In this document: in pieces, positions 13,973 to 23,882 of the stretch
How positions within the stretch are numbered: the first letter of the stretch is position 1
Layout: every line of letters begins with the position of its first letter
Assembly (NCBI RefSeq): GCF_003182275.1
Contig: NZ_QGTR01000005.1
Location: 186,001-250,000, forward strand
Source: Hoeflea marina
Lineage (GTDB): Bacteria; Pseudomonadota; Alphaproteobacteria; Rhizobiales; Rhizobiaceae
Direction of reading: 5' to 3'
DNA length: 64,000 nt
Made by a program: the position numbers and the translations under genes
Notes under the pieces: generated by a model
The model's database searches: none
What the model saw: the letters and a program-made list of their open reading frames with translations, nothing else
What the model was told of the DNA's origin: nothing

Positions 13973-14713
13973 TCAGTTGATCAGGCCGAGGCGGAAAGCG
14001 ATGGCGACGGCGTGATGGCGATTTCGCGCTTTCAGCTTGTCCTGGATCGAATTCATGTACCAGTCGACGGTATGGGTCGAAAGACCGAGCGTCGACCCCA
14101 CCTGATGGGATGTCAGCCCCTTGGCCAGATAGCCAAGCGTTTCCATCTCGCGCCGGGTCATTTCGACGTCGACGGGCGCGGCCAGTTCGCCGCAGGTGAC
14201 TGGATCGCGCCGCTCGAGCACCAGCCAGAAGGCCTTCTTGGCCACCGTGTCGAACAGCGCCATCTGCCCCGCGGTCAGATCCACCTTGTTCCCGCCGAGC
14301 GTCAGCACGCCAATGAGGCCGCGTCGGCCATGCACGGGGAACACGTAGCCGTCCGCAAGCCCGAACTTGCGGGCATCGACCATGACCCTCTCCATGCGCT
14401 TGCGCTGCGGATGGTTGCGGAATGCGGACAATGCCTCGCTCCACCGATATCCCCGCTGGCAATGACCGAGATAGCGCACCAGCGGATCGACGGCGGCATA
14501 TTTGCGCTGCACATAGATTTCGGGCCACCCCTGGGGCCAGCAGCCGGCGAGCATGAGGGTGTCGATGTCGTCGGCGCTGCACACCTGGCGGGTCAGCGTG
14601 AAATAGGTGAAGCCGAACTGTTCGACCAACTGCTCAAGGGCAGCGATCATCTCGTCGAGTCCAAGTTGACTGTGATCTGTATCGAGGAAACGGCAAAGCG
14701 TGCTCGTGCTCAT
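13973..14713 (-). CDS. LuxR-type quorum-sensing regulator (solo)
   Basis: A 246-residue LuxR protein. The N-terminal autoinducer-binding domain keeps the residues that contact acyl-homoserine lactones in TraR: Trp63, Tyr67, Asp76, Pro77 and Trp91 in exact spacing, with Gly118 shifted by one. The C-terminal HTH is GLTSHQVGSTLGLSTHTVDWYMNSI. Ligand binding is therefore likely retained. No luxI-type synthase lies in the window, so it is a solo or is paired elsewhere. GGGGAG precedes the ATG at 14713. Its 3' end is 161 bp before pyc on the same strand, a neighbourhood that may let cell density affect anaplerosis, though that is inference. Confidence 0.9.
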   Translation of the reverse strand: MSTSTLCRFLDTDHSQLGLDEMIAALEQLVEQFGFTYFTLTRQVCSADDIDTLMLAGCWPQGWPEIYVQRKYAAVDPLVRYLGHCQRGYRWSEALSAFRNHPQRKRMERVMVDARKFGLADGYVFPVHGRRGLIGVLTLGGNKVDLTAGQMALFDTVAKKAFWLVLERRDPVTCGELAAPVDVEMTRREMETLGYLAKGLTSHQVGSTLGLSTHTVDWYMNSIQDKLKARNRHHAVAIAFRLGLIN

Positions 14714-14951: not shown

Positions 14952-16097
14952 TCAGATGCAGGCTTCGAAGAGCGCTGTCGTGTTCTGCGTCGTCAGCGCC
15001 ACGGGATTGCCGCCGGCGCTTGGGTCTTCCAACGCCATTTCCGTCATTTCGGCGATCCGCTCCCTGCCGACGCCGAGCTCGCCCAGCTTGTCGGGAACGC
15101 CAAGATCGGCACGCAGCTTGAGCACGAAGTCGTAGAACCCGTCGAAGCCGCCGGCAATTCCCATATACGCGGCCGCACGGGCGATCCGCTCCTCGATCAC
15201 CGGCCGGTTGAGCAGCAGCACCGGCGGCATCACCACCGCGTTGGTCATTCCGTGATGGGTGTTGTAGACCGCGCCCACCGGATGCGACAGCGCGTGGATG
15301 GCGCCGAGCCCCTTCTGGAACGCGACCGCGCCCATGGCCGCGGCGCTCATCATTTCGGCCCGGGCCGCGATGTTGGAGCCGTCTGCGACAACCAGCGGCA
15401 GGTTCTCCTTGACCAGCCGCATGCCCTCAAGCGCAATGCCCTGCGACATCGGATGGTAGAACGGCGAGGAATAGGCTTCGAGGCAATGGGCGAAGGCGTC
15501 CATGCCCGTGCCCACGGTGATCATCCTGGGCATGCCCACGGTGAGTTCCGGGTCACACAAGGTCACCGTCGGCAGCAACTTGGGATGGAAGATGATCTTC
15601 TTGACGTGAGTGACCGAATTGGTGAGTACGCCGGCACGACCGACTTCCGAGCCCGTGCCGGCCGTGGTCGGCACCGCGACGATCGGGGCGATCGCCGACG
15701 CGTCGGCCCGGGTCCACCAGTCGCCGATGTCCTCGAAATCCCACACTGGTCGGCTCTGGCCTGCCATGAAGGCGATGAGCTTGCCGAGATCCAACCCGGA
15801 GCCGCCGCCGAAGGCCACAACGCCATCATGATTGCCGGCCCTGAAGGCCTTGACCCCGGCGTCGAGATTGTTTTCGTTCGGGTTTGGATCCACATCGGCA
15901 AACAGCGCCCGCCCGAGGCCGGCGGCGTCAAGCAGGTCGAGCGCATGCGCGGTTATCGGCAACGCCGCAAGGCCGCGGTCGGTGACCAGCAGCGGGCGTT
16001 TCATGCCGGCGGCGTGGCAGGCGTCGGCGAGTTCGGAAATGCGTCCCGCCCCGAAACGGATGGCGGTGGGATAGGACCAGTTGGCGCGCGGGCTCAT
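14952..16097 (-). CDS. Iron-containing (group III) alcohol dehydrogenase
   Basis: A 381-residue Fe-ADH. The N-terminal nucleotide-binding half has FGGGSGLDLGK (about 96-106) and TTAGTGSE (144-151); the C-terminal half has the metal ligands Asp200, His204 (GTGMDAFAHCLEAY), His268 and His282 (GAIHALSH and NTHHGMTNAV). These enzymes interconvert primary alcohols and aldehydes or reduce semialdehydes with NAD(P)H. The ATG at 16097 overlaps the aldehyde dehydrogenase stop as ATGA, so the two are translationally coupled and probably act in series on an alcohol-aldehyde-acid route. Substrate unknown. Confidence 0.9.
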   Translation of the reverse strand: MSPRANWSYPTAIRFGAGRISELADACHAAGMKRPLLVTDRGLAALPITAHALDLLDAAGLGRALFADVDPNPNENNLDAGVKAFRAGNHDGVVAFGGGSGLDLGKLIAFMAGQSRPVWDFEDIGDWWTRADASAIAPIVAVPTTAGTGSEVGRAGVLTNSVTHVKKIIFHPKLLPTVTLCDPELTVGMPRMITVGTGMDAFAHCLEAYSSPFYHPMSQGIALEGMRLVKENLPLVVADGSNIAARAEMMSAAAMGAVAFQKGLGAIHALSHPVGAVYNTHHGMTNAVVMPPVLLLNRPVIEERIARAAAYMGIAGGFDGFYDFVLKLRADLGVPDKLGELGVGRERIAEMTEMALEDPSAGGNPVALTTQNTTALFEACI

Positions 16098-17482
16098 GCT
16101 TGCTTCTTTCTCAGGTGGTAGGACTTGGGACGGGTCAGGTTGTGATAGCCGATCTCGGAGAGCGAGCCGCCGCGGCCGGTGGCCTTGCAGCCGGTCCAGC
16201 ACAGCGCCGGGTCGAGATAGTCGGCCCGGTTCATCATGATGGTGCCGGTTTCGATCTCGTCGCCGATGCGCATGGCCCGCTCCGGATCGTTGGTCCACAG
16301 CGAGGCGGTCAGGCCGAAGGCGCAATCGTTCATCAGTTCGAGCGCCTCGGCGTCGGAGTCCACCGGCATGATTCCGACGACGGGACCGAAGCTCTCGTCG
16401 CGCATCACCCGCATCGTGTGGTCCACGTCGACCAGCACCTGCGGCATCAGATAGGCGCCACCATCGTCCTGCGGGAACAGCGACGGATCAATCAGCGGTC
16501 TGGCGCCGTCGGCGATGGCTTCGGCGGTCTGGGCACGCACCTCGGCGGCGAAGCGGACATTGGCCATCGGCCCGATGGTGGTTTCGGGATCAAGCGGATT
16601 GCCGAGCTTCAGGTTCGAGGCCCAGGCCTTCGCCTTGTCGATGAACTCGGCATAGAGCGGGCGGGCGACATAGATGCGCTCGATGCCGCAGCAGCACTGG
16701 CCGGCGTTGTAGAGCGCGCCGTCCATCAGCGTGTCGACGGCCCAGTCGAGATCGGCGTCTTCCATGACATAGCCGGGATCCTTGCCACCGAGCTCGAGTC
16801 CGAGGCCTGTGAAGGTACCGGCCGCCGCGCGCTCGATGGCCTGGCCGCCGCCGACCGATCCGGTGAAGTTGATGAAGTCGAAGGATCCCGCCGAGATCAG
16901 CTGCTCCGAGCCCTTGTGGTCGAGGAACAGGTTGATGAACACGTCTTCGGGCATGCCGGCCTCGGTGAAGGCGCGGACGATCCGCTCGCCCACCAGCAGG
17001 GTCTGGGTCGCGTGCTTGATCACCACCGCATTGCCGGCGATCAGCGCCGGCACGATGGTGTTGATGGCGGTGAGATAGGGATAGTTCCACGGCGCGACGA
17101 TGAACACCACGCCCTGCGGCACGCGGCGGATGTAGCGGCTGAACTGGGCCGACTCCTCGATCGAGATCGGCGCCAGCGCCCGTTCGGCGATTTCGGCCAT
17201 GTAGGCGGTGCGGTCGTTGACGCCGCCGAATTCGCCGCCATAGCGCACCGGCCGGCCCATCATGTGGGCGAGCTCGAGCACGACGTCGTCCTTCATGGCG
17301 TTGAGCCGGGCAACGCCCTTCTGCACCAGCGCGACGCGCTCGGCGAGCGGCCGCCTGGCCCAGGATTTCTGTGCCGTGCGCACGCGGGCCACGGCGGCGG
17401 CGGCACTGTCCACCGTCATCACAGGCCGTTCGGCGTAAACCGAACCGTCGATGGGCGAGATGCATTTGAGTGTCATGGTCAT
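16094..17482 (-). CDS. NAD(P)-dependent aldehyde dehydrogenase
   Basis: A 462-residue ALDH superfamily protein. FIVAPWNYPYLT (about 127-138) and FINFTGSVGGG are the cofactor motifs, Glu230 in LELGGK is the general base and the nucleophile is in NAGQCCCGIERI, most likely Cys264. The triple cysteine at the active site is unusual. It oxidises an aldehyde to the acid in the cytosol; substrate unknown. It is coupled to the downstream Fe-ADH by a 4-bp overlap. Its start lies 11 bp after the vapC stop, so transcription from the toxin-antitoxin promoter should continue into it. A GGAAG element within the gap is the ribosome site. Confidence 0.9.
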   Translation of the reverse strand: MTMTLKCISPIDGSVYAERPVMTVDSAAAAVARVRTAQKSWARRPLAERVALVQKGVARLNAMKDDVVLELAHMMGRPVRYGGEFGGVNDRTAYMAEIAERALAPISIEESAQFSRYIRRVPQGVVFIVAPWNYPYLTAINTIVPALIAGNAVVIKHATQTLLVGERIVRAFTEAGMPEDVFINLFLDHKGSEQLISAGSFDFINFTGSVGGGQAIERAAAGTFTGLGLELGGKDPGYVMEDADLDWAVDTLMDGALYNAGQCCCGIERIYVARPLYAEFIDKAKAWASNLKLGNPLDPETTIGPMANVRFAAEVRAQTAEAIADGARPLIDPSLFPQDDGGAYLMPQVLVDVDHTMRVMRDESFGPVVGIMPVDSDAEALELMNDCAFGLTASLWTNDPERAMRIGDEIETGTIMMNRADYLDPALCWTGCKATGRGGSLSEIGYHNLTRPKSYHLRKKQA

Positions 17483-17493
17483 TGGTCTTCCAA

Positions 17494-17910
17494 TCAGCAG
17501 GGGAGTGTCTTGACGTGCCCGAGCGCGCCATAAGCCAAAATTGCCCGGTCTCGGGTGACTATGGTCAAGTCCTGTTCCCGGGCGGTTGCGATCAGTATTC
17601 GGTCAACGGGATCGTTGTGGATGGGTCGAGGCAAGAACGAAGAGCCAATCAGCACATGCGGCGAGACTTCAGCAAGATTGGCGTTGAACTGCACAACTGC
17701 ATCCTCAAACCATCGCAGCGGATCGCGCGTCGATGCCAGTCGGTTTTTCGAAGCGAGCATTCCTACTTCCCAAGCAGTCATTGCAGATATCGAAACTGCG
17801 TCGTCCGCCGATTGTGCTTGCGCCAACCGCTCAAGGGCCATGTCGTCCATGTCAGCTCCATCCATGAGCCAGATGACAGCACAGGTATCGAGCAGGTATC
17901 GATCAATCAA
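17494..17910 (-). CDS. vapC: VapC-like PIN-domain toxin
   Basis: A 138-residue PIN-domain ribonuclease-type protein. The acidic metal-binding set is intact: Asp8 (LLDTCAVIW), Glu48 (TAWEVGML), Asp100/Asp103 (NDPVDRILIATA) and Asp121 (IVTRD). VapC toxins cleave RNA, often initiator tRNA or 23S rRNA, until bound by the antitoxin. The GTG-free ATG start at 17910 lies inside the upstream antitoxin gene, an 8-bp overlap typical of toxin-antitoxin pairs. The pair sits between the glutamine-synthetase-like gene and the aldehyde dehydrogenase and appears to be an insertion into a metabolic gene string. Confidence 0.9.
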   Translation of the reverse strand: MIDRYLLDTCAVIWLMDGADMDDMALERLAQAQSADDAVSISAMTAWEVGMLASKNRLASTRDPLRWFEDAVVQFNANLAEVSPHVLIGSSFLPRPIHNDPVDRILIATAREQDLTIVTRDRAILAYGALGHVKTLPC

Positions 17911-18322
17911 CGTCGTATACCTTTCCCCATTCCGGATCGGCGGGTTCTGTCAGATCAAGCGAGGGATCGATCTTGAGCGTTCCCTTCATTGCGCCGAAGT
18001 AGGACGGCCGTTTGGCCTGGGCATTGCTCGCCGCCAAGGGGCCGCCGTTACGCGACGGCTTCTGCGCTGCTTTGGACTTGGCTTCAATTCGTCTGAAGGT
18101 GAGTTTCTCGCCCACCACATCGACCTGTTCAGATTGGTAACCCGCCGCAAGCCATTCCTTGGTCATCACATTGTTCATCGTATTGTTGCTCCACCAAGCA
18201 GGGAACTTCTTGGATGCAGGCAACGGCTCTCCCAACACCGCCTCAATTTCCGCAAACGACATCTGGATTTGGTCCTTGTTCTGCAAGGCAAGAAACCTCC
18301 TTAAAGGTTCGTACTTTCCCAT
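17903..18322 (-). CDS. Putative antitoxin with DUF7662-like N-terminal domain
   Basis: A 139-residue protein. Residues about 2-80 (KYEPLRRFL; SFAEIEAVLGEPLP; AWWSNN; EWLAAGYQSEQVD; KLTFRR) resemble the widespread small domain I know as DUF7662. A lysine-rich linker (81-105) leads to a C-terminal tail with MKGTLKIDPSLDLTEPADPE, the kind of extended acidic peptide that antitoxins wrap around PIN toxins. The start at 18322 has an excellent AAGGAG 8 nt upstream. It overlaps vapC by 8 bp and precedes it, the usual antitoxin position. Neutralising activity and DNA binding are inferred; the domain's role is, to my knowledge, not established. Confidence 0.75.
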   Translation of the reverse strand: MGKYEPLRRFLALQNKDQIQMSFAEIEAVLGEPLPASKKFPAWWSNNTMNNVMTKEWLAAGYQSEQVDVVGEKLTFRRIEAKSKAAQKPSRNGGPLAASNAQAKRPSYFGAMKGTLKIDPSLDLTEPADPEWGKVYDVD

Positions 18323-18386
18323 TTCCGATCTCCTTAAGCCAGATGAGCGCCCGCCGCAGGAGGAGTTTAATCTTCCCAAAGATTTC

Positions 18387-18407
18387 AGTAAACTCATGTA
18401 GTTTACT
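18387..18407 (-). promoter_or_regulatory. Palindromic operator candidate of the antitoxin-vapC operon
   Basis: Perfect 8-bp arms (AGTAAACT and AGTTTACT) flank a 5-bp centre, 65 bp upstream of the antitoxin start, in a distinctly AT-rich patch. Position and symmetry fit autoregulation of a toxin-antitoxin operon. Confidence 0.6.
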
Positions 18408-18486: not shown

Positions 18487-19851
18487 TTAGGCCCGCTCGA
18501 ACCCGCGGGCGATCTCCCAGTCGGTGACCGCCTTGTCGAACTCGTCCTGTTCCCATTCGGCGCAGCGCACATAGTGATCGACCACGTCGTCGCCCATGGC
18601 CTCCCGCAGCATGGTCGAGCCGCGTAGCGTGTCCGTGGCGGCGCGAAGCGTCGAGGGAATGTGCCTGGCCGCCTCGTTCTGGTAGATGTCGCCGCCGGTC
18701 GGCGGCGCCAGCTCGAGCTTGTCCTCGATGCCCTTGATGCCGGCGGCGATCAGCGCCGCCTGGGCCAGATAGGGGTTCATGTCGGAGCCGCCGATGCGGC
18801 ACTCGACCCGCACGCCCTTGGAGTTTTCGCCGCAGAGCCGGAAGCCGGCGGTGCGGTTGTCCACCGACCAGACGATGCGGGTGGGCGCGAACGTGCCCTT
18901 CATGAAGCGCTTGTAGCTGTTGACATAGGGCGCCAGGAAGCAGGTGTAGTCGGCGGCGTATTCGATCAGCCCGGCCATGAACTGCCGCATCAGCTCGGAC
19001 ATGCCGTGGTCGCCGTCGGGATCCTGGAAGGCCGCGGTCTTGCCCTGCCACAGCGACATGTGCACATGCGAGGAGGAGCCGACCTTGTTGGCGTTCCATT
19101 TCGGCAGGAAGGTCACCGAGCGGCCGTGGGCCCAGGCGATTTCCTTGACTGCATGCTTGGCGATGGTGTGGTGATCGGCGCAGTCGAGCGCCTCGGCATA
19201 ACGGATGTTGAGCTCTTCCTGGCCGGTCTCGGCCTCGCCCTTGGAATTCTCGATCGGAATGCCGGCGGCGAACAGGTGATTGCGCACCGGCCGCATGATC
19301 GACTCTTCCTTGGTTGTCTGCAGGATGTGGTAGTCCTCGTTGTAGGCGCTGATCGGGGTAAGCTCGCGGTAGCCCGATTTCGCCAGGTCGCGAAAACTCT
19401 GCTCGAACAGGAAGAACTCCAGTTCGGTCGCCATCATCGCCTCATAGCCCAGCGCCTTCAGGCGCTCCCTCTGCACCTTGAGGATTTGGCGCGGCGATTG
19501 CGGCACCGGCTCATGGGTCTTGTGGTTGAGGAGGTCGCACAGCACCATGCAGGTTCCCTCCAGCCAGGGCACGCGGCGGATGGTCGAGAGATCCGGCTTC
19601 ATCACATAGTCGCCATAGCCGGCCTGCCAGCTGGTGGTTGCGTAGCCGTCAGGCGTCGCCATTTCGAGGTCGGTCGCCAGCATGTAGTTGCAGCAATGGG
19701 TTTCCTCATGGCTGGAGTCGATGAAATTCTGGACATGGAAACGCTTGCCCATCAGCCGCCCCTGCATGTCGACGCAACAGACCAGCACGGTGTCGATGTC
19801 GCCGGACTTGGCGGCGGCCTTTACGTCTTCAAAGCTGAGGTTTCCAGACAT
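18487..19851 (-). CDS. Glutamine-synthetase-like gamma-glutamyl-amine ligase
   Basis: A 454-residue member of the glutamine synthetase superfamily, class I-like but of the branch that includes PuuA and other gamma-glutamyl ligases. Recognisable elements are ATELEFFLFEQ (metal-binding glutamates), SSSHVHMSLW (ATP/metal site His), NRTAGFRLCG and VECRIGGSDMNPYLAQAA with the catalytic-loop arginine. True GlnA signatures around the adenylylation tyrosine are missing. It probably couples glutamate to a primary amine using ATP, the entry step of gamma-glutamylated amine catabolism. It lies upstream of the TA pair, ALDH and Fe-ADH on the same strand. Substrate unknown. Confidence 0.82.
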   Translation of the reverse strand: MSGNLSFEDVKAAAKSGDIDTVLVCCVDMQGRLMGKRFHVQNFIDSSHEETHCCNYMLATDLEMATPDGYATTSWQAGYGDYVMKPDLSTIRRVPWLEGTCMVLCDLLNHKTHEPVPQSPRQILKVQRERLKALGYEAMMATELEFFLFEQSFRDLAKSGYRELTPISAYNEDYHILQTTKEESIMRPVRNHLFAAGIPIENSKGEAETGQEELNIRYAEALDCADHHTIAKHAVKEIAWAHGRSVTFLPKWNANKVGSSSHVHMSLWQGKTAAFQDPDGDHGMSELMRQFMAGLIEYAADYTCFLAPYVNSYKRFMKGTFAPTRIVWSVDNRTAGFRLCGENSKGVRVECRIGGSDMNPYLAQAALIAAGIKGIEDKLELAPPTGGDIYQNEAARHIPSTLRAATDTLRGSTMLREAMGDDVVDHYVRCAEWEQDEFDKAVTDWEIARGFERA

Positions 19852-22986: not shown

Positions 22987-23790
22987 TCAGGATCCTCTCT
23001 CGGCGTGGCTGGCGACATCGGCCAGGGCTGAAAGTGCTGCGGCGATGTGCCGGGCCAGATAGCCTGCCATGGCCGCCTGGTCGGCTTCGGTCGAAACCAG
23101 ATCGTTGCGGATCTCGATCATCACGTTCAGGAGTCCGGCAGGCAGGGCGTGCTCCAGCAATGTGTGGGTGACGCCGTCGGCCGGACCATAGGGCTGATTG
23201 CGTTCGATGCGAAAGCCGCCCGCATCGCCGGCCATGCTGTCGAGCATGGCATCGGCGAATCGCCGGTCGCTGTCGTGCAGGATGCCGATCTCGACCTCGC
23301 GCGGCTTGCCGAAGTAGACCGGGGTGAACGTGTGGATCGTCACCAGCACCGGTGGCCCGTCGGCCGCCGCTCGGCGGCCAAGGACTTCGGCAAGGGCGGA
23401 CCGAAAGGGGTGATAGATCGCATCCGCGCGTTCGGCCCTCTCGTCCGCGCCCAGCCGCAGATTGCCCGGAATGTCATAGATCTCGCTCTTTGCCGGCACG
23501 GAGAACGGAGAGTCGGGCGGCCGGTTGCAGTCATAGGCTAGCCGCGAGAAGGCCTGAGCCACCAGCGTCGCGTCGAGCTGGTCCGACAGCAGGTCGGCGA
23601 CGGCGAGCGCGCCCGGATCCCACGCAATGTGGCTCGACAGCGCCTCTGCATCGAGGCCCAGATCGCCCAGCGCCTTCGGCATCCGCGGTGACGCGTGCTC
23701 GCAGACCAGCACCACGGCGGCCGACGCATCGGGCCGCCGGATCATCACCGGCGATCCTTCCGAAGGATCTATCAGCCCCCTGCCTGCCAC
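22987..23790 (-). CDS. N-formylglutamate amidohydrolase family protein
   Basis: A 267-residue member of the N-formylglutamate deformylase family (HutG/FGase type). VVLVCEHASPRMP is the family N-terminal strand with the metal-binding Glu-His, AYDCNRP the conserved Asn-Arg segment, LVTIHTFTPVYFGKPR the His-Thr-Phe motif and VMIEIRNDLV the catalytic Glu-Arg strand. It probably cleaves an N-acyl group from glutamate or an analogue. I favour GTG at 23790, which has GGAGG six bases upstream and restores the family-length N-terminus; ATG 23745 is the alternative. No other histidine-degradation genes are nearby, so its role here is probably tied to the TRAP-imported compound. Confidence 0.85.
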   Translation of the reverse strand: MAGRGLIDPSEGSPVMIRRPDASAAVVLVCEHASPRMPKALGDLGLDAEALSSHIAWDPGALAVADLLSDQLDATLVAQAFSRLAYDCNRPPDSPFSVPAKSEIYDIPGNLRLGADERAERADAIYHPFRSALAEVLGRRAAADGPPVLVTIHTFTPVYFGKPREVEIGILHDSDRRFADAMLDSMAGDAGGFRIERNQPYGPADGVTHTLLEHALPAGLLNVMIEIRNDLVSTEADQAAMAGYLARHIAAALSALADVASHAERGS

Positions 23791-23882
23791 GCCTGCCTCC
23801 GCATTGCACCGTTTGCCGTCCCCGAAGCGGGGTCTTCGCCTGTATGTAACATTGATTAGGATTGCCGTGTCGTTGTCAATGC

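What the first reader, a model, noticed from the sequence alone, without database searches (positions are those of the whole stretch)
17494..18407. DUF7662-VapC toxin-antitoxin pair wedged into a metabolic gene string
The sequence shows an intact PIN toxin (all acidic residues present) overlapping by 8 bp a 139-residue upstream gene whose N-terminal domain looks like DUF7662 and whose C-terminal tail looks like a toxin-wrapping peptide. Canonical VapB antitoxins have AbrB, RHH or Phd folds, so this architecture would be a different antitoxin class. An AT-rich 21-bp palindrome upstream fits autoregulation. The pair interrupts the ligase-ALDH-ADH direction of transcription, suggesting horizontal insertion.
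Basis: partly seen in the sequence, partly recalled or inferred. Interest (0 to 1): 0.72.

Follow-up and report, generated by a model that had tools for sequence, protein, structure and literature searches.

The report
VapBC-type pair with DUF7662 antitoxin
A two-gene bacterial toxin-antitoxin unit, whose antitoxin joins a domain of unknown function to a borrowed toxin-binding tail, sits in one gap of a metabolic operon where related species hold nothing or a different version of the unit.

Summary
Window 17494-17910(-) is an intact PIN/VapC-type gene; 17903-18322(-) encodes 139 aa with an N-terminal DUF7662 domain (Pfam, over cut-off) and a tail; they overlap by 8 bp; a perfect 21-bp palindrome lies upstream. 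The pair is a conserved unit: all 80 relatives kept from named genomes have the PIN gene directly after it. The tail is homologous to the tails of Phd/YefM antitoxins that accompany sister PIN toxins, and DUF7662-paired toxins form one clade (99/98). So this is a VapBC-like pair whose antitoxin kept a Phd-type tail but carries another N-terminal domain. DUF7662 probably binds the operator: at the same chromosomal slot in another genus, an 89% identical toxin and an 80% identical tail carry a Cro/C1 helix-turn-helix instead, and the upstream DNA differs with it. The slot, between glutamine-synthetase-like and aldehyde dehydrogenase genes, is vacant in 14 of 18 and 20 of 30 genomes read in two genera. 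Toxicity, neutralisation and DNA binding are untested; co-folding did not dock the tail.

The parts
17494..17910 (-). PIN-domain (VapC-type) toxin gene, 138 aa, TTG start
   Evidence: PF01850 48.6 bits; acidic residues invariant in 54 toxins; PIN part of the relative L056 matches VapC structures
17903..18322 (-). antitoxin gene, 139 aa, overlapping the toxin gene by 8 bp (17903-17910)
   Evidence: 80 of 80 kept relatives are followed by the PIN gene
18089..18313 (-). DUF7662 domain (residues 4-78), proposed operator-binding domain
   Evidence: PF24698 53.6 bits; confident model; exchanged for Cro/C1 HTH in relatives
17927..18010 (-). C-terminal tail (residues 105-132), proposed toxin-binding tail of Phd/YefM type
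   Evidence: tail profile finds Phd tails, 14 of 27 over the best of 1350 shuffles
18387..18407 (.). 21-bp palindrome, proposed operator
   Evidence: enrichment of palindromes in related upstream regions
18487..19851 (-). glutamine-synthetase-like ligase gene: upstream border of the slot
   Evidence: PF00120 329.8 bits; no NCBIfam family over its cut-off
16094..17482 (-). aldehyde dehydrogenase gene: downstream border of the slot, starts 11 bp after the toxin stop
14952..16097 (-). iron-type alcohol dehydrogenase gene of the same string (start read by eye)

Best explanation
A chromosomal type II (VapBC-like) toxin-antitoxin pair. The downstream gene makes a PIN-domain RNase toxin. The upstream gene makes an antitoxin whose Phd-derived C-terminal tail wraps and blocks the toxin and whose N-terminal DUF7662 domain, probably winged-helix-like, binds the palindrome and represses the pair. 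The overlap couples synthesis of the two. The pair occupies a recurrent slot in a catabolic operon, where different versions have come and gone. Shown by sequence: the pair, its domains, the tail homology, the slot and the natural exchange of the N-terminal domain. Inferred: RNase activity, neutralisation, operator binding, coupling.
For: Domains and overlap. 80 of 80 kept relatives have the PIN gene directly downstream. The tail profile finds Phd antitoxin tails, best E 3e-11, 14 of 27 above the best of 1350 shuffled controls. DUF7662-paired toxins are one side of one branch, 99/98, next to toxins with Phd partners. L230 (HTH) and L235 (DUF7662) share 89% of the toxin and 80% of 65 tail residues; their DNA aligns on both sides of, but not within, the 326/384-bp block that holds upstream region and N-terminal domain, whereas the two HTH copies L230 and L238 align right through. 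L209 is a third HTH copy (PF01381 28.8 bits, cut-off 23). Upstream palindromes: score 8 or more in 12 of 80 regions, 1.2 expected. DUF7662 model confident over residues 1-80. PIN part matches VapC structures.
Against: No toxicity, neutralisation or DNA-binding data. In the fused model the tail stays at low confidence (block means 48-70), lower than in the antitoxin alone (62-81), so no interface is predicted. Mutual information was inconclusive. Structural matches of DUF7662 are weak (best Z 5.5). 13 of 27 Phd tails do not beat the best shuffle. No sigma-70-type promoter match near the palindrome. Most regions (68 of 80) do not reach palindrome score 8, and related regions are not independent.
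Confidence: 0.75

Rival explanations
1. The pair is a toxin-antitoxin unit, but DUF7662 is not its repressor: it binds RNA or another ligand and helps to target or block the toxin, and the operon is regulated otherwise.
For: DUF7662 is also found in proteins with a Swt1-like HEPN domain (L010, L018) and, below cut-off, with GIY-YIG (L137), where a repressor role is not obvious. Structural matches to DNA-binding folds are weak.
Against: In the same slot and on the same toxin and tail type it is exchanged for a Cro/C1 HTH together with the upstream DNA, and sister toxins have Phd/YefM domains there.
Confidence: 0.17
2. The two genes are a regulator of the metabolic operon and a domesticated PIN protein, not an addiction or stress unit.
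For: In 23 of 80 loci the pair sits exactly between the same two metabolic genes, with ALDH starting 7-43 bp after the toxin stop.
Against: 56 of 80 loci do not show the GS-like gene upstream (a few have little 5' DNA), and other clades have other neighbours. 14 of 18 genus genomes have the operon without the pair. The catalytic residues are invariant.
Confidence: 0.08
3. Inert passenger: a decaying relic of a mobile pair.
For: A same-genus genome, G015, holds only a remnant.
Against: Both window genes are open and well conserved, with invariant acidic residues; no relative was found in phages, viral contigs or, with a PIN annotated beside it, plasmids.
Confidence: 0.05

Closest known systems
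Phd/YefM-VapC (PIN) toxin-antitoxin pairs
   Same: sister PIN toxins, the same type of C-terminal tail, antitoxin gene first
   Different: the N-terminal domain is DUF7662, not Phd/YefM; the unit often sits in a fixed operon slot
Xre (Cro/C1 HTH)-PIN pairs
   Same: L209, L230 and L238 are such pairs with this tail, toxin type and slot; Xre-PIN pairs are tabulated by Makarova et al. 2009 (PMC2701414, passages)
   Different: other DNA-binding domain and other upstream DNA
DUF433 (COG2442)-PIN and other PIN antitoxin families of Makarova et al. 2009 (PMC2701414, passages)
   Same: a domain of formerly unknown function as PIN antitoxin
   Different: DUF7662 is not named in the passages shown; the label may be younger than the paper
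Combinatorial toxin-antitoxin networks (NetFlax, PMC10440598, passages)
   Same: one toxin fold paired with many antitoxin domains
   Different: here the exchange is seen at one chromosomal slot, with upstream DNA and N-terminal domain changed together

Membership tests
VapBC-like type II toxin-antitoxin | two small adjacent or overlapping genes, antitoxin first | tested here: met
   8-bp overlap in the window; same order in 80 of 80 kept loci
VapBC-like type II toxin-antitoxin | PIN-domain toxin with its acidic residues | tested here: met
   PF01850 48.6 bits; D8, E48, D100, D103, D121 invariant in 54 toxins
VapBC-like type II toxin-antitoxin | antitoxin tail that binds the toxin | tested here: inconclusive
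   tail homologous to Phd antitoxin tails, but no predicted interface
VapBC-like type II toxin-antitoxin | autoregulation at an operator | tested here: inconclusive
   palindrome present and unique; binding not testable here
VapBC-like type II toxin-antitoxin | toxicity and neutralisation | not testable with these tools
   needs expression assays
DUF7662 (PF24698) | score over Pfam's cut-off | tested here: met
   53.6 bits against 26
Phd/YefM antitoxins (PF02604) | N-terminal Phd/YefM domain | tested here: not met
   only DUF7662 found at E up to 1; tail alone is shared
Winged-helix DNA-binding domains | clear structural match | tested here: inconclusive
   element order fits; best Z 5.5 RepE and 5.3 CtsR, under the level that counts as clear

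The most novel reading that the evidence does not exclude
The gap between the GS-like and ALDH genes is a docking slot in which related toxin-antitoxin cassettes replace each other, probably by recombination in the conserved flanks, and in which the repressor half (operator plus N-terminal domain) is exchanged as one block while toxin and tail stay. Because ALDH starts 7-43 bp after the toxin stop, the cassette also lays its own autoregulated promoter before ALDH and ADH, so that swapping the repressor half rewires a metabolic operon.
Probability: 0.3. Interest if true: 0.8.

Novelty: new variant of a known kind. Interest (0 to 1): 0.63.

Why it matters
It gives DUF7662, for which the held library returned no paper, a probable role: a swappable repressor domain, here on a PIN antitoxin. 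It offers a natural experiment, at one chromosomal slot, for how antitoxins change their DNA-binding half without losing their toxin. The antitoxin matched no NCBIfam or PADLOC family and its tail no Pfam family, so pairs of this kind are easily missed in annotation.

Tried and rejected
Chance neighbours: rejected by 80 of 80 conserved pairs. Phage or plasmid cargo: no relative in phages; in viral contigs 33 stretches matched a pattern and none was a relative; 9 plasmid records match, one over at least 80% of the query (30% identity), and that gene has no PIN annotated beside it (the gene table is incomplete) and a GIY-YIG match below cut-off. All slot occupants as one clade: rejected, p 0.000175; the pairs of the window's genus as one clade: not rejected, p 0.148. 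Pair inherited strictly with the GS gene: Mantel correlation 0.30 over 26 loci (3 of 999 permutations as high), yet GS genes 93-98% identical can flank pairs only 43-53% identical; others with such GS genes are 64-94% identical. Interface by co-folding: not obtained. Mutual information over 112 pairs: of the top 60 column pairs 17 lie in the tail (33 columns), 16 in DUF7662 (80), 27 in the linker (17): inconclusive. Alignment A3 was misaligned and dropped for the smaller A5. Sequence searches of solved structures: P0001 one match at E 0.8, P0002 and A4 none. A viral scan with the DUF7662-RHH protein L047 found nothing. In the Phd comparison L146, L147, L160 and L169 were dropped because the script found no clean frame, and 8 of 96 tail rows failed the pattern used to cut tails. 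Of the 27 Phd antitoxins five were checked in Pfam: five matched PF02604, two over the cut-off. L045:2161-2610 was wrongly taken for the downstream gene; L045:2084-2581 is the match.

Full report
What is there. On the minus strand of the window lie, in order of transcription, a glutamine-synthetase-like gene (18487-19851), a 139-aa gene (17903-18322), a PIN gene (17494-17910), an aldehyde dehydrogenase gene (16094-17482) and an iron-type alcohol dehydrogenase gene (14952-16097, start read by eye). The two small genes overlap by 8 bp. The 139-aa protein has DUF7662 at residues 4-78 (53.6 bits, cut-off 26); the other is a PIN protein (48.6 bits, cut-off 23.6). Neither matched PADLOC; in NCBIfam the antitoxin matched nothing and the PIN protein two VapC families far below their cut-offs. 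A perfect 21-bp palindrome (18387-18407) lies upstream and is the only copy in the genome with up to two mismatches. The genes are co-oriented, so the remark on an interrupted direction of transcription does not hold. The genus is probably Hoeflea: contig G013:C43 of the same genus and the Hoeflea sp. M_23 contig of L094 have the same length, 161,679 bp; this is inference.

A conserved unit. A scan of genome contigs with a profile of 32 paired antitoxins found 180 relatives, of which the tool kept the best 80. In 80 of 80 a PIN gene of the same type follows directly; in L119 its frame is split and in L080 it is cut by the contig end. By the script's choice of start codon the overlap is 4 bp in 32 and 8 bp in 18 of 80. 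The query came from paired antitoxins, so this shows that the unit is conserved, not that DUF7662 always goes with PIN. In a class-wide draw of 385 genomes there were 18 DUF7662 places, of which 6, the window included, have this PIN beside them. Over 50 scored DUF7662 frames, 35 of 35 with this PIN have the tail (31 bits or more) and 15 of 15 without it do not (4.3 or less); the tail profile was trained partly on the same rows, so the first figure is partly circular. Two of the 15 (L045, L047), and L214 found later, show another architecture: DUF7662, a long linker, a weak FitA-like RHH match (L045 only, 20.3 bits, cut-off 27), then a different downstream gene (PF01850 in L047 and L214; that of L045 is 52% identical to that of L047).

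Where the tail comes from. Close PIN relatives without DUF7662 have Phd/YefM-type antitoxins: the 7 plasmid records opened out of 54 and 20 loci of the class search, read by eye. A profile of the DUF7662-protein tails finds the tails of these 27: 14 score above the best of 1350 shuffled controls, best E 3e-11; 13 do not. The two best, L145 and L148, lie in the Phd group next to the DUF7662 clade in the toxin tree. In that tree (54 DUF7662-paired and 27 Phd-paired toxins, 138 columns) the DUF7662-paired toxins are one side of a single branch, 99/98. There is no outgroup, so the direction, a Phd N-terminus replaced by DUF7662, is the simplest reading and not shown.

What DUF7662 probably does. 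The AlphaFold2 model of the antitoxin is confident over residues 1-80 (block means 90-97); its order of helices and strands fits a winged helix (recalled). Structural matches are weak, best Z 5.5 to RepE and 5.3 to CtsR; RepE entries fill much of the list, and unrelated rows such as MAGE and proteasome subunits follow closely. Natural domain exchange is the stronger evidence. In a genus whose GS genes are 82-100% identical to that of Mesorhizobium sp. ES1-4 (taken as Mesorhizobium, inference), 31 genomes were searched and 30 loci of the slot read: 20 vacant (41-361 bp), 8 with DUF7662 types, 2 with a Cro/C1-HTH type. A third HTH copy is L209 (PF01381 28.8 bits, cut-off 23; tail profile 53.5 bits; GS and ALDH on either side). 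L230 (HTH) and L235 (DUF7662) share 89% of the toxin and 80% of 65 tail residues; their DNA aligns over the GS end (86% of 167 bp) and again from mid-antitoxin into ALDH (85% of 713 bp), but not in the 326/384 bp between, which hold the upstream region and the N-terminal domain. As a control, the two HTH copies L230 and L238 align over the whole stretch (70% of 1280 bp). Upstream elements go with the type: AGCTTTA or AAAGCTG elements in the three DUF-A loci and the DUF-C locus, none in the three HTH loci or in 19 of 20 vacant sites; the four DUF-B loci lack them too but share a GATAGTA-TACTAT inverted repeat, read by eye. In 80 upstream regions the palindrome score reaches 8 in 12 (1.2 expected) and TAAAGCT/AGCTTTA occurs in 30 (shuffle mean 1.75, maximum 5). 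These regions are related, so the figures overstate independence. The window's own palindrome has a near match in L003 of the same genus, by eye.

The slot. In 18 genomes of the window's genus the GS-ALDH gap is 55-166 bp in 14, 919-1004 bp with a pair in 3, and 294 bp with a decayed remnant in 1. Among the 80 loci, 24 have the GS-like gene 49-93 bp upstream and 24 have ALDH 7-43 bp downstream, 23 both, in Phyllobacteriaceae, Rhizobiaceae, Paracoccaceae, Stappiaceae, Kaistiaceae, Aestuariivirgaceae and Bosea; ALDH starts are extrapolated from the alignment. The other 56 do not show this GS gene upstream, a few for want of DNA. Recurrent neighbours there are an amidase gene and GatB, TauD and GcpE genes (Bradyrhizobium), and a response regulator and an exonuclease-type gene (Caulobacteraceae), named from one or two representatives of each cluster. 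Four further pairs fetched later (L208-L211) all lie in the GS-ALDH slot. On a tree of joined antitoxin and toxin (110 rows, some the same genome from two collections; 35 in the slot) the slot label needs 7 changes, shuffled mean 29.7, and one clade is rejected (p 0.000175). GS genes that are 93-98% identical can flank pairs only 43-53% identical. So versions have replaced each other, or entered repeatedly, at one place.

Mechanism and limits. The best reading is a VapBC-like type II unit with a modular antitoxin: DUF7662 as repressor domain, Phd-type tail as toxin blocker. The PIN part of the fused model of the relative L056 matches VapC and VapBC structures (Foldseek probability 1.00). The same model did not place the tail on the toxin: block means 48-70, lower than the 62-81 of the antitoxin alone. 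Mutual information did not help. Toxicity, neutralisation and DNA binding were not tested. The operon looks like amine catabolism by gamma-glutamylation (GS-like, ALDH, ADH, and an N-formylglutamate amidohydrolase-like gene at 22990-23850); the pathway name is a recalled lead and the papers were seen only as a listing.

Comparison with print. DUF7662 returned no paper, nor did the term sets; the searches returned papers. This covers only the held open-access library, and the family may be described there under another name. Passages were read of PMC2701414, PMC10440598, PMC8522696 and PMC7354431; the rest were seen as listings. Makarova et al. 2009 (PMC2701414) describe other PIN antitoxin families and tabulate PIN with PHD and Xre partners. 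The finding is a new variant of a known kind.

Noticed in passing
L181 (G015), gap between GS and ALDH: A decayed remnant of the pair: the antitoxin tail region and the end of the PIN gene remain in a 294-bp gap.
   Followed up: partly
L045, L047, L214: A second DUF7662-PIN architecture: DUF7662, long linker, in one copy a weak FitA-like RHH match, followed by a different PIN gene.
   Followed up: partly
L010:1459-2526(-) and L018:709-1737(+): DUF7662 fused behind a Swt1-like HEPN domain, both over Pfam's cut-off.
   Followed up: no
L203-L207, L212, L213: DUF7662 proteins in frames of about 260-340 aa with a shared-looking C-terminal part; the two checked (L203, L204) match only DUF7662 in Pfam; no PIN of this type was found in these seven loci.
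   Followed up: partly
L083:2969-4816(+) and L083:5806-7410(+): Here the pair lies between an amidase gene and a GatB gene (Glu-tRNA amidotransferase subunit), another recurrent site.
   Followed up: partly
L061 (record titled Frankia sp. RB7): The pair groups inside Bradyrhizobium pairs and its contig length equals that of an order-mate genome (G737:C67), so the record's name looks wrong.
   Followed up: no
window 13976-14713(-): A LuxR/SdiA-like regulator, below NCBIfam cut-offs, near the ADH end of the operon.
   Followed up: no
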